Of a stretch of DNA of 21,654 nt, positions 5,606 to 8,923 are shown piece after piece. Each line of letters opens with the position of its first letter. The first letter of the stretch is position 1. Source of the stretch: a virus; IMG/VR virus record IMGVR_UViG_3300035670_001376, positions 1 through 21,654 of that record. One strand, given 5' to 3'. The notes under the pieces were generated by a model. It did no database searches. It worked only from the letters and a program-made list of their open reading frames with translations, and had not been told where the DNA came from. The position numbers and the translations under genes were made by a program.

Positions 5606-5620
5606 TTTTTATTATTTATT
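5606..5620 (-). promoter_or_regulatory. Late-type promoter box before the small acidic gene
   Basis: Reads AATAAATAATAAAAA on the minus strand, 24 bases from the ATG at 5596. ATAAATA matches the T4-superfamily late promoter core (TATAAATA) apart from the first base. The box overlaps the stop codon of the primase gene. Confidence 0.7.
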
Positions 5621-6765
5621 TAGGTAAAAAAGACATCTAATTCGCTTTCAGAAAAGTAATTAATAATACGATCGTTAAATTCAGTAAAAGTTAGATCTTG
5701 ACTTTTGGAATGGAGAAAAATAAAAAGGTCGTTAACGTCCTTAATCTTTTTAATACTTGAGAGCCAGTCAGTCGGATAGAGAAGCTTAAGATCATTTAAT
5801 AATTTTGACCACATAAACACTCTATATCCTTTTTTAATTAGGTTAATAGATTGATTTCGACCTGCCCTATCATTATCAAAAAAGATAAGAGCGTTTTCTT
5901 TAGTTAAGATATTATCTAATAGGAGATTAATTTTAGTAACCCCAGTAGAGGCCATTGAATTTTGGAGAAACATTGCATCAATTTGACCTTCAGTAACGAT
6001 AACTTTTTTTGTAAAGTCAACGTTCATTACATTATAGTAATTATTTAAGGTATCGATATCAATAATAATATCGTCTGCTAGTTTCTTGCTAACTAATCCA
6101 GTTTTTCTAAATTCTGAATAGTTTTTAATTAGATACTTTGGACCATCCGTTACCTCTATTTTTCTAGCTGAAAAACCTAGGATTCTTCTGGATTTTGCGT
6201 CAAGATTAAAAAGATAGATTTTATCTTCTCGACTATCATAATAACAACTTTGAGTAAAGAGTGGAAGCTTGGTAATTTGACGACGCTCTACGAATGCTCT
6301 AATTGGACTCTCTTCTGGAGCTAGATGGCATGGAATTAGGGAAAATCGGTCGACTATATCATCTAATTTTAAGAGATGCTTACCGATTCCTTTGCTAATA
6401 AAAGTCTCAATTAAGGAACCTTTACGTTTGGCTGGAGCAGAGTGTTTAAATTCAGGATCTTTAATAATAGTATCTGGTAAAGTAAGCCCGTATTTTAAGG
6501 CAAACTTTTTGATCATACCGCTAAGATCTGTTTTTATTCCACAACCATCATTGTAACACTTATAGCTATTTGTTGCTAGATAGAAATTGCCGCGTTTTTT
6601 ACGTGGATCCTTTTCAGAGTCACCGCAAAAAGGGCATGCGAAATTAAGCTTATCCTCCGATTCATTTATCTCTTGCTTTATAGGTAAACCAGAAAACCTC
6701 TTTTTCAAGAGGTCTTTAATAAACTGATTTACACTATATTTCTTCAAAATATCAAATGTTATCAT
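5620..6765 (-). CDS. 61: DNA primase, T4 gp61-like (zinc finger plus Toprim)
   Basis: A 381-residue primase. The N-terminal zinc-binding site is C44-x2-C47 (CPFCGDSEKDPRKKRG) with C70-x4-C75. The Toprim domain carries EGQIDA (E259, D263) followed by FFDNDRAGR (D297, D299), the acidic residues that bind the metal ions for primer synthesis. T4 gp61 works with the gp41 helicase to make RNA primers for lagging-strand synthesis. The start ATG overlaps the end of the polymerase gene by 14 bases, indicating translational coupling of primase to polymerase. The stop codon overlaps the late-promoter box of the downstream acidic gene. Confidence 0.93.
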   Translation of the reverse strand: MITFDILKKYSVNQFIKDLLKKRFSGLPIKQEINESEDKLNFACPFCGDSEKDPRKKRGNFYLATNSYKCYNDGCGIKTDLSGMIKKFALKYGLTLPDTIIKDPEFKHSAPAKRKGSLIETFISKGIGKHLLKLDDIVDRFSLIPCHLAPEESPIRAFVERRQITKLPLFTQSCYYDSREDKIYLFNLDAKSRRILGFSARKIEVTDGPKYLIKNYSEFRKTGLVSKKLADDIIIDIDTLNNYYNVMNVDFTKKVIVTEGQIDAMFLQNSMASTGVTKINLLLDNILTKENALIFFDNDRAGRNQSINLIKKGYRVFMWSKLLNDLKLLYPTDWLSSIKKIKDVNDLFIFLHSKSQDLTFTEFNDRIINYFSESELDVFFT

Positions 6766-8209
6766 CTTCTACTAATTCGGAAGTATTAGTTTCTGATTTT
6801 TCTTTTTTCTTGGCTAGCCGCTTCAAATATTTATCAAGTTCTAGTTTTGGAACAATTGTAGTATCTAGACCATATCGAGTTAAGACTTCAATATACTCAG
6901 CTGAGTCAGAGTCAGCTACCTCTGCTTCAGGATTTCCAATTATTTTCCAAAACTTTTCTGGAACTTCAGTATGTTCCATAGTTTCTGAATTAACTGCATA
7001 GAGAGGATATAAACTAGCTTCATCATCTGCTTTTTTGCCTTTTGCTGGAATTAAGGTGACTGCTCGTTTTAGTTGAGGATTCAGGGAACCAACTTTCATT
7101 GAGGTTAAAAGTCGATTAATTGGATCAACTATTAAGGAAAAGAATTGTGACTCAAAATCCATCGGAATTGCTAATTCATCTGGGTAGTTTCCTGGCATAT
7201 AAGCAAAGACATCAAACTCGTTTTCGTTTTCACTAGGATTACAATAGTAGAATTTGATCTTATCGCCTTCACGCAACTTTGGATACTTTCCATCAAGTCC
7301 ATTCTTTATCAACATGTGATTATAAATGGCAGCTGCTCTAGGAAAGATTGAAATTCCTTTCTTTAATTCAAGTCGAGCTTCACTAGTAATATACTTATTA
7401 TAGACTCGGATTTTAAAGTTAAATGCAAGGTCATCAGGATGTAGAGCCGTTGCCTCTTCTCGAAGAGCTATCATTCGTGGAATAATATCCCTTTCTAGAT
7501 CTAGACGTTTACCTTGGGATAGGATAAACTCGTAAAATTCTTTCAATTTATCCCTAGCCCAAATTGGATATGAACCTTTAATTGACTCAAGACCTTTAAT
7601 AACCATATACCTTTTTTCTTTTGGAATTAGGGTATAGTCCGGATTAGGTTCGTATGCTACCTTTAGTGCATAGTTCTTTTTCTTTAGCCATAGACCATGT
7701 TCAGAAAGGTTTTCCAATTTAAAGTTAAGTCGATTGGTTGTATTAAAGAGTCGACCGTATTTTTGAAAACACTGATCGAAATATTCAGCAAGACGATAGC
7801 GGTCAATATTAATACAGATATTGAGAACCTCGTCCTTATTAAATTGAGCGCCAACTATCGAGTTAATTGCAGAGTCAAACTGAACATAGATGGAGTCAGT
7901 ATCAGTATAGATTGCAGCTTCATCATCGACTTTATTAATAGTGTATTCTGAAATACCTAGCTTTTCGTGAAGCTCCCGATCAAGATGCCATTTCTCTTGA
8001 AAATAGTGATTTACTGCTTTAATTGAAAACTTAATTAGGTCTTGGCCCTGTAATGTAATTGACTGAGCAACTGCCGGATTGTAGAAATAGAACCACTTAT
8101 TTCCGTTGGCTCCATAAATAGAGTTAATTAAGATCTTGATTGCGTTTTGTTTAAGGTCGAGGCTACGTATTCGTTTACTCTTTTCTTCTGGCGTCATTTC
8201 GTTCATCAT
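6752..8209 (-). CDS. 43: DNA polymerase, family B (gp43-like), C-terminal half only
   Basis: A 485-residue protein with the C-terminal palm and thumb of a family B polymerase. Motif B is K25-ILINSIYG (K-x3-N-S-x-Y-G) and motif C is YTDTDS at 101-106, with catalytic D103 and D105. A KKKNYAL stretch follows, the KxY-type DNA-binding site, and then YMVIKGLESIKGSYP. Missing are the 3'-5' exonuclease domain and motif A (DxxSLYP), both required for a complete enzyme. The gene begins about 20 residues before motif B at two consecutive ATGs (8209, 8206), and upstream the sequence switches to an oppositely oriented gene, so the other half must lie outside the window. I read this as a split polymerase whose halves assemble in trans, as known for some Aeromonas T4-like phages, rather than a decayed gene, since the fragment is intact with good coding sequence. 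Confidence 0.92.
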   Translation of the reverse strand: MMNEMTPEEKSKRIRSLDLKQNAIKILINSIYGANGNKWFYFYNPAVAQSITLQGQDLIKFSIKAVNHYFQEKWHLDRELHEKLGISEYTINKVDDEAAIYTDTDSIYVQFDSAINSIVGAQFNKDEVLNICINIDRYRLAEYFDQCFQKYGRLFNTTNRLNFKLENLSEHGLWLKKKNYALKVAYEPNPDYTLIPKEKRYMVIKGLESIKGSYPIWARDKLKEFYEFILSQGKRLDLERDIIPRMIALREEATALHPDDLAFNFKIRVYNKYITSEARLELKKGISIFPRAAAIYNHMLIKNGLDGKYPKLREGDKIKFYYCNPSENENEFDVFAYMPGNYPDELAIPMDFESQFFSLIVDPINRLLTSMKVGSLNPQLKRAVTLIPAKGKKADDEASLYPLYAVNSETMEHTEVPEKFWKIIGNPEAEVADSDSAEYIEVLTRYGLDTTIVPKLELDKYLKRLAKKKEKSETNTSELVEDDNI

Positions 8210-8219
8210 ATAAATTATA

Positions 8220-8234
8220 ATACTAAATTAATTT
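8220..8234 (-). promoter_or_regulatory. Conserved promoter-like 15-mer before the polymerase gene
   Basis: Reads AAATTAATTTAGTAT on the minus strand, ending 10 bases before the ATG at 8209. It is identical to the element before the 2018-2380 gene. A shorter relative (CTTAGTATATTA) occurs before the UvsY-like gene. Confidence 0.45.
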
Positions 8235-8271
8235 GATGAGTTTAAATTTTACGGCAAAATTAAAATTCGAA

Positions 8272-8286
8272 AATAAATAATAAAAA
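8272..8286 (+). promoter_or_regulatory. Late-type promoter box before the 8297 gene
   Basis: Reads AATAAATAATAAAAA, 25 bases from the ATG at 8297. It is in the divergent region between the polymerase gene and the PhoH unit. Confidence 0.7.
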
Positions 8287-8296
8287 GAAAATTAGT

Positions 8297-8923
8297 ATGG
8301 GGAGGTTGAGTTATGATGAGCCGCGAGACAAGACTTCAGAGTTACTAGATGTTCTTCCTTTTATGTCGTCATTTCCATTTAATGATTATGAAATCACTAT
8401 GGATGAACGTGGAGACGACGCTATTTCACTGGGAATTTCTCCTATCTTGGTAAAAGAAATCGGCGAATATGGTACAACAAATATGTTGAATTTCCATTAC
8501 CTTGAAAACAATTCAGAAATTACAGTATCATTGCAACAGGAAGACGTCGAGTGGATTATTGAAGAGGCGAATCGTATCAAAAGCATTGACTCAATCCGAA
8601 TCAAGTTAGATGATGCCCTAGAGAGTGACGACCTTACTAAGAAATTAGAAGGAGTTCGGCTTGGTAGAAAATTCATCAAGAAAGTAGATCCTTATAAAAT
8701 AGGCGCTATCAGTTTCAATGAAGTATTAAATGATTTATTAGAAATTAATGAAACTAATCTTACTTCTAAAATCAAACTAAGCGTACAGAAATCAATGATT
8801 AGTCAACTTAGAGACCAAACTTTCTCCGAAAAACAGTACCAAGCACTCAAGGCATTTTTTAATTTCCAGATACACTATGCAAAGATTATCTTAGGCATAG
8901 TAATATCAATTAAAATATACTAA
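8297..8923 (+). CDS. Unknown protein upstream of PhoH
   Basis: A 208-residue protein that I do not recognise. It is acidic in the first half (ITMDERGDDAIS, EITVSLQQEDVEWIIEEANR) and mostly helical in the second (DDLTKKLEGVRLGRKFIKKV), ending in a short hydrophobic tail (IILGIVISIKIY) that might be a weak membrane-interacting or packing segment. No enzyme motif is evident. It is the first gene of a three-gene forward unit and ends three bases before the PhoH-like gene. Directly upstream of its ATG lies a late-type promoter box at 8272-8286, suggesting late expression. The 87 bases between it and the polymerase gene form a divergent promoter region. Confidence 0.6.
   Translation: MGRLSYDEPRDKTSELLDVLPFMSSFPFNDYEITMDERGDDAISLGISPILVKEIGEYGTTNMLNFHYLENNSEITVSLQQEDVEWIIEEANRIKSIDSIRIKLDDALESDDLTKKLEGVRLGRKFIKKVDPYKIGAISFNEVLNDLLEINETNLTSKIKLSVQKSMISQLRDQTFSEKQYQALKAFFNFQIHYAKIILGIVISIKIY

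What the first reader, a model, noticed from the sequence alone, without database searches (positions are those of the whole stretch)
6752..8209. Trans-split DNA polymerase: only the motif B/motif C half is present
The gene starts about 20 residues before motif B and contains motif C, but motif A and the exonuclease domain are missing and cannot be upstream, where an opposite-strand gene lies. The fragment is intact, has its own promoter-like element and is coupled to the primase. Split gp43 genes are known in some Aeromonas T4-like phages, where the break is linked to a homing endonuclease; here no endonuclease is adjacent and the halves are fully separated. The break falls in the fingers/palm region.
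Basis: partly seen in the sequence, partly recalled or inferred. Interest (0 to 1): 0.78.

Follow-up and report, generated by a model that had tools for sequence, protein, structure and literature searches.

The report
Replication polymerase made as two proteins
A large group of aquatic, T4-related phages encodes its DNA-copying enzyme as two separate genes, cut at the tip of the enzyme's "fingers" and in this phage's close relatives lying over 50,000 bases apart, so the enzyme must be put together from two protein chains; the cut site was already known from a few phages, but a fixed, long-distance split across a whole lineage was not described in the papers I could search.

Summary
The window (a 21.7-kb virus fragment) encodes only the C-terminal half of a T4-gp43-like family B DNA polymerase (motifs B and C), under strong purifying selection and overlapping a primase gene. 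It is not a relic. Relatives in the same starred clade of the C-half tree carry the missing half (exonuclease, motif A) as its own gene, 52-67 kb upstream on the same strand; no full-length family B polymerase was found there. The break lies between RB69 residues ~505 and ~554, the loop between the two fingers helices. All 80 best N-half relatives in IMG/VR are cut at the same place; gaps are 1-16 kb in marine relatives and 100-280 kb, on opposite strands, in several huge phages. Cultured phages PAU and MA9V-1 share it. Introns and split inteins at the break were looked for and not found. The same site is split, independently, in Aeromonas, Acinetobacter and Vibrio phages; a two-chain enzyme is reported active for the Aeromonas type. 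Best explanation: an obligate two-chain polymerase, probably split once early in this lineage and later dispersed. A new variant of a known kind. Not shown: the window's own N half, and biochemical assembly.

The parts
6752..8209 (-). C-terminal half of family B DNA polymerase: second fingers helix, palm with motifs B and C, thumb, plus ~110-aa C-terminal extension of the window's clade
8111..8137 (-). motif B, KILINSIYG (residues 25-33)
   Evidence: translation; K25, N29, Y32, G33 invariant in 23 sequences
7892..7909 (-). motif C, YTDTDS (residues 101-106), catalytic aspartates
   Evidence: translation; D103, T104, D105 invariant
6755..7087 (-). C-terminal extension (residues 375-485) seen in the window's clade but not in the shorter marine C halves; no convincing homologue
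   Evidence: lengths; alignment
8210..8296 (-). intergenic region with conserved promoter-like element AAACT...AGTA at 8221-8243(-)
5620..6765 (-). DNA primase (phrog_47), overlapping the polymerase C half by 14 nt
8297..8923 (+). divergent 208-aa gene of unknown function that blocks any upstream extension of the polymerase; a ~209-aa opposite-strand ORF sits there in many relatives

Best explanation
The ORF is one of two obligate subunits of the phage's replicative family B DNA polymerase. The partner, missing from this 21.7-kb fragment, is a ~470-aa protein with the N-terminal domain, the 3'-5' exonuclease, motif A of the palm and the first fingers helix. In close relatives its gene lies 52-67 kb upstream on the same strand. 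The chains should assemble without splicing: the palm sheet is completed across the interface (motif A from the N chain, motifs B and C from the C chain), and the fingers are a two-chain helical hairpin with an open tip. The gene was probably split once in the ancestor of this T4-like lineage, at a loop that tolerates breaks, after which the halves behaved as separate replication genes and drifted apart. Shown: the break, its conservation, the separate N half in relatives, invariant catalytic residues in both, no other polymerase found in relatives. Inferred: physical assembly, activity, the window's own N half, the single origin.
For: Same-clade relatives carry an N half with its own start and stop. 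Twenty-six N halves related to the window's clade and 80 of 80 distant ones end at the same site. C halves start at the same site. Exonuclease and motif A residues are invariant in the N half, motif B and C residues in the C half. dN/dS is 0.03-0.09 over both halves. Profiles align to RB69 gp43 98-504 (N) and 555/559-812 (C), so the break is at about 505-554. phrog_262 finds no full-length family B gene in contigs holding both halves; no family A or C polymerase was found in ten contigs. The predicted C half alone has low confidence around motifs B and C (residues 19-52, 102-105, 157-190), and the N half just before motif A (372-398), as expected if each half needs the other. Precedent: split 43A/43B proteins co-purify and are active (PMC2988022, citing Petrov 2010). 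The window sits in a 98/95 clade with G001, G002, G005 and G013, all with N halves.
Against: The window's own N half has not been seen; the contig reaches only 13.4 kb upstream of the gene. No complex could be modelled with these tools, and nothing biochemical was tested. One contig with ~58 kb upstream of the C half (G015) shows no N half, though gaps up to 67 kb occur. One unsplit relative (L222) nests weakly within the split clade in the concatenated tree, so a second split or a re-fusion is not excluded, although the AU test does not reject a single split clade (p 0.32).
Confidence: 0.88

Rival explanations
1. The fragment is a second or relic copy, and an intact polymerase does the replication.
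For: The window is a fragment, so an intact gene elsewhere cannot be excluded for this phage itself.
Against: In 7 close relatives holding both halves, and in 35 marine contigs, the profile search finds no full-length gene; no family A or C polymerase in ten such contigs; strong purifying selection on the C half and invariant catalytic residues.
Confidence: 0.03
2. The halves are joined covalently, by trans-splicing of the mRNA or by a split intein at the break.
For: Inteins do occur in these polymerases at motif C in some relatives, and a split intein has been reported in the PolB of phage MIJ3 (PMC6892783).
Against: In the window's clade N halves end roughly 25-30 residues into the fingers helix and C halves begin ~24 residues before motif B, leaving no room for intein fragments. 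Each half has its own start and stop, and the N-half stop is followed closely by other ORFs. No Rfam intron or other RNA family in the window or in five relative loci.
Confidence: 0.03
3. The C half has become a separate protein with another job, for example a primase partner, and no longer forms a polymerase with the N half.
For: It is coupled to the primase gene, carries a ~110-aa extension peculiar to its clade, and has its own conserved promoter-like element.
Against: Motif B and C residues are invariant, and so are motif A and exonuclease residues in the partner. Neither half alone holds a complete active site, and no other polymerase was found in relatives.
Confidence: 0.05
4. Assembly error or truncated gene call.
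For: The source is a single metagenomic contig.
Against: The same start and divergent upstream gene occur in dozens of contigs from many samples; the same split is in complete cultured genomes.
Confidence: 0.01

Closest known systems
Split gp43 (43A/43B) of Aeromonas T4-like phages 44RR and 25 and relatives (here 50AhydR13PP and 65.2; also Acinetobacter AB1I1T and Vibrio henriette 12B8)
   Same: Same family B polymerase and the same break in the fingers loop; Aeromonas halves reported to co-purify and be active (PMC2988022).
   Different: There the halves are neighbours, 2 bp to ~3 kb apart, one with an HNH endonuclease and others with small ORFs between, and intact relatives are close by on the tree. 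Here they are 52-67 kb apart and the split is nearly universal in the lineage.
Polymerase halves of Sphingomonas phage PAU (gp105/gp110) and Chryseobacterium phage MA9V-1 (ORF135/ORF138)
   Same: Split in the same region; they group with these phages in the C-half tree. Complete genomes of cultured phages.
   Different: Halves only 2.2-2.4 kb apart. Annotated as two DNA polymerases; not described as a split in the MA9V-1 paper.
Prevotella Lak megaphages and 460-640 kb uncultured phages (LR756500, LR756504, LR745206)
   Same: Same break; N and C halves are separate genes.
   Different: LR756504, LR745206 and Lak-A2/C1 have halves 100-280 kb apart on opposite strands; Lak-B8 ~13 kb and LR756500 ~10 kb on one strand. 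Lak-A2/C1 and LR756500 also carry an intein at motif C.
Rhodothermus phage RM378, the cultured Far-T4 phage
   Same: Polymerase in two genes about 57 kb apart.
   Different: Break at T4 position ~371, between exonuclease and palm; its polymerase gene holds motifs A, B and C together.
Split DNA polymerase III alpha of group 2.2 jumbo phages (PMC7824862)
   Same: A polymerase core split into separate, distantly located genes.
   Different: A different, family C enzyme that accompanies a family B polymerase; no family C match was found in ten contigs here.

Membership tests
T4 gp43-like family B DNA polymerase | motif B (K-x3-N-[SG]-x-YG) and motif C (DTD) | tested here: met
   present and invariant; phrog_262 E 6.6e-60
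T4 gp43-like family B DNA polymerase | motif A and 3'-5' exonuclease motifs in the same polypeptide | tested here: not met
   absent from the ORF and from the window; present in a separate gene in relatives
Split gp43 (43A/43B) class | break in the loop between the fingers helices | tested here: met
   same alignment region as Aeromonas, Acinetobacter and Vibrio split genes
Split gp43 (43A/43B) class | halves adjacent, separated by an untranslated spacer, homing endonuclease or small ORFs | tested here: not met
   52-67 kb apart in the window's clade; window C half flanked by primase and a divergent gene
Split gp43 (43A/43B) class | two chains co-purify and are active | not testable with these tools
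   reported for Aeromonas phage (PMC2988022)
Split-intein PolB | intein fragments at the break | tested here: not met
   tails at the break too short for intein fragments
RM378-type split | break between exonuclease and palm, motif A with B and C | tested here: not met
Far-T4 / moraphage-like aquatic lineage | monophyly of capsid, portal or terminase with Far-T4 or moraphage references | tested here: inconclusive
   portal best matches are the same huge and Lak phages (38% to LR756500); no tree was built with Far-T4 or moraphage reference sequences

The most novel reading that the evidence does not exclude
A very large, mainly aquatic lineage of T4-like phages (several with Bacteroidota hosts) replicates with an obligate heterodimeric family B polymerase whose two genes are regulated and inherited as independent units, so that assembly at the fingers and palm is a point of control or of reassortment rather than a harmless scar.
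Probability: 0.25. Interest if true: 0.82.

Novelty: new variant of a known kind. Interest (0 to 1): 0.62.

Why it matters
Replicative family B polymerases are normally single chains whose fingers open and close on each nucleotide. A lineage-wide enzyme that keeps its active site across two separately encoded chains tests how far a catalytic core can be cut, gives a natural two-part polymerase for engineering, and shows that genes split at a hotspot can become fully unlinked. It also matters for annotation: phages of this lineage are recorded as having two DNA polymerases, and trees built from one half may be read as trees of the whole enzyme. Two cultured members (PAU, MA9V-1) make it directly testable.

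Tried and rejected
Intact second polymerase: not found in relatives. Introns: no Rfam hits. Homing endonuclease between halves: in the four loci read, the ORFs between include ribonucleotide reductase subunits and unnamed ORFs, and those tested gave no endonuclease match; the 52-67 kb stretch in the window's clade was not annotated. Sliding-clamp identity of the ~250-aa ORF before the marine C half: suspected from position and size, not supported by Pfam or PHROGs. Consensus promoter scan: not above chance, so I used conservation instead. Homologue of the C-terminal extension: only a short match to a designed DARPin construct, taken as spurious. AlphaFold of the C half alone: global fold poor (pTM 0.52; TM to RB69 about 0.3), so it is used only as a hint. 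RM378 as direct precedent: its break is elsewhere. Literature: 10 searches found no account of this split in Far-T4, Lak, PAU or moraphages; only open-access papers are held.

Full report
WHAT IS THERE. The window is a 21,654-base virus record with no larger assembly behind it. It carries T4-type genes: portal (gp20), a baseplate wedge protein, a PhoH-like protein and a UvsW-like helicase. ORF 6752-8209(-) encodes 485 aa. It matches the family B polymerase profiles only over their C-terminal part: Pfam 136-239 of 453, PHROG 500-839 of 856. Motif B begins at residue 25 and motif C is at 101-106. The reading frame is closed six codons upstream, and a divergent gene begins at 8297. The polymerase overlaps the primase gene (5620-6765) by 14 nt, an arrangement kept in most relatives.

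NOT A RELIC. A viral-contig scan gave 49 related loci, 49-96% identical. Where the start is covered they begin at the same place, typically M-E-D...KKLDLKQNAIKILINSIYG, most with an in-frame stop a few codons before. dN/dS is 0.05 between the window and its 96% relative L002, and about 0.09 against L016, where synonymous sites are near saturation. Motif B and motif C residues are invariant over 23 sequences down to ~31% identity.

THE MISSING HALF. [quoted passage not shown] It has the exonuclease motifs and motif A, and ends just after the first fingers helix (...ARKILTRLYDERIKTQGEIKQLKNSK*). The gap to the C half is 52.1, 66.9, 53.5, 52.7, 56.5, 54.1 and 57.7 kb, always upstream on the same strand. 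The window reaches only 13.4 kb upstream, so its own N half would lie outside it. A direct scan for N halves gave 26 loci, all ending at the same site, most with another ORF close behind. The window lies in a 98/95-supported clade with four of the seven two-half genomes.

WHERE THE BREAK IS. Against PDB sequences the N profile ends at RB69 gp43 residue 504 and the C profile begins at 555-559. From general knowledge of RB69 gp43 the fingers span about residues 472-571 as two antiparallel helices, so the cut is in the loop at the fingers' tip. In a joint alignment the cis-split Aeromonas, Acinetobacter and Vibrio genes, the Chryseobacterium phage, the Lak phages and three uncultured huge phages break in the same loop, while RM378 breaks near T4 residue 371.

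HOW WIDE. A more distant scan kept the best 80 viral loci; in all 80 the N half ends at this site and none is unsplit. The C half lies on the same strand in 35 of 36 longer contigs, 1.0-15.9 kb downstream, median 4.1 kb; the remaining contig ends shortly after the N half. In the four of these read, the ORFs between include ribonucleotide reductase subunits and a recurring ~250-aa ORF; none tested matched a homing endonuclease. In LR756504, LR745206 and Lak-A2/C1 the halves are 100-280 kb apart on opposite strands. Cultured phages PAU and MA9V-1 have the halves 2.2-2.4 kb apart. In genome contigs one related unsplit gene was found, L222.

ORIGIN. Trees unite the whole group (100/98; 100/100), apart from Straboviridae in which cis-splits interleave with intact genes. 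L222 is placed inside the split group in one tree (weakly, 82/81) and outside it in the C-half tree (81/62). The AU test does not reject all split members of the lineage as one clade (p 0.32). One early split is the simplest reading but is not proven.

HOW IT WORKS. Neither half has a complete active site. No full-length family B gene was found in relatives, nor family A or C polymerases in ten contigs. Predicted alone, the C half is least certain around motifs B and C and the N half just before motif A, where each should contact the other; this is only suggestive, because models were made singly and the C-half model is globally poor. A review reports that the split Aeromonas proteins co-purify and polymerise (PMC2988022). 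Splicing was checked: no intein fragments fit in the short tails at the break, and no intron family was detected. Non-covalent assembly of two chains is therefore the best-supported mechanism, inferred rather than shown.

WHAT IS KNOWN. The Aeromonas split is known, and split polymerases are noted for MIJ3 (intein) and Jug phages (endonucleases). The Far-T4 paper, MA9V-1 paper, Lak taxonomy paper and marine jumbo phage paper do not mention this split in the passages searched. The moraphage paper lists two 'DNA-directed DNA polymerase' families, in 27 and 25 phages, without comment in the passages read; these may be the two halves, but I could not test that. Only open-access papers are held, so absence from this library is not proof of novelty.

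NAMES. 'Far-T4' is used here as a working label for the window's clade (T4-like portal, PhoH near structural genes as in PMC4360716); membership was not tested with reference markers.

Noticed in passing
L038:9974-11914; L031:8026-11140; L032:8060-11152: Inteins at motif C (YTDTD|S) of the C half in some relatives: in frame in L038; in L031 (385-aa ORF between) and L032 interrupted by another ORF, like a split or fractured intein. Similar inteins in Lak-A2/C1 and LR756500.
   Followed up: partly
L058-L064: A third, stand-alone ~245-265-aa exonuclease-like ORF resembling the polymerase exonuclease domain (phrog_262 about 98-226) occurs in many of these genomes.
   Followed up: no
L111 and L095:21996-22937 (RM378): RM378's polymerase is also in two genes about 57 kb apart, but cut between exonuclease and palm.
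   Followed up: partly
L166:3271-4038; L155:7650-8414; L193:8493-9242: A ~250-aa ORF sits directly upstream of the C half in marine relatives; it could be a sliding clamp by position and size but has no Pfam or PHROG match (the L155 copy was not searched).
   Followed up: partly
window 6755-7087: The window clade's C half has a ~110-aa C-terminal extension with no convincing homologue, confidently modelled in part; marine C halves stop before it, many ending in a short hydrophobic tail.
   Followed up: partly
L055:2581-3048; L092:3367-3951; L093:3031-3648; L286:10464-10967: A dUTPase gene (annotated, or dUTPase-like by weak match or by eye) lies next to the polymerase N half in several of these phages and in Vibrio phage henriette.
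   Followed up: no
window 8221-8243 and upstream of C halves in relatives: Conserved AAAC[TC]-N-AGTA(TAA) element 9-12 nt before the start codon, with no clear Shine-Dalgarno in the window; possibly the promoter type of these phages.
   Followed up: partly
L222:161-2686: An unsplit 841-aa relative on a 3.9-kb contig of an 'uncultured bacterium' MAG; shows what the fingers loop may have looked like before the split.
   Followed up: partly
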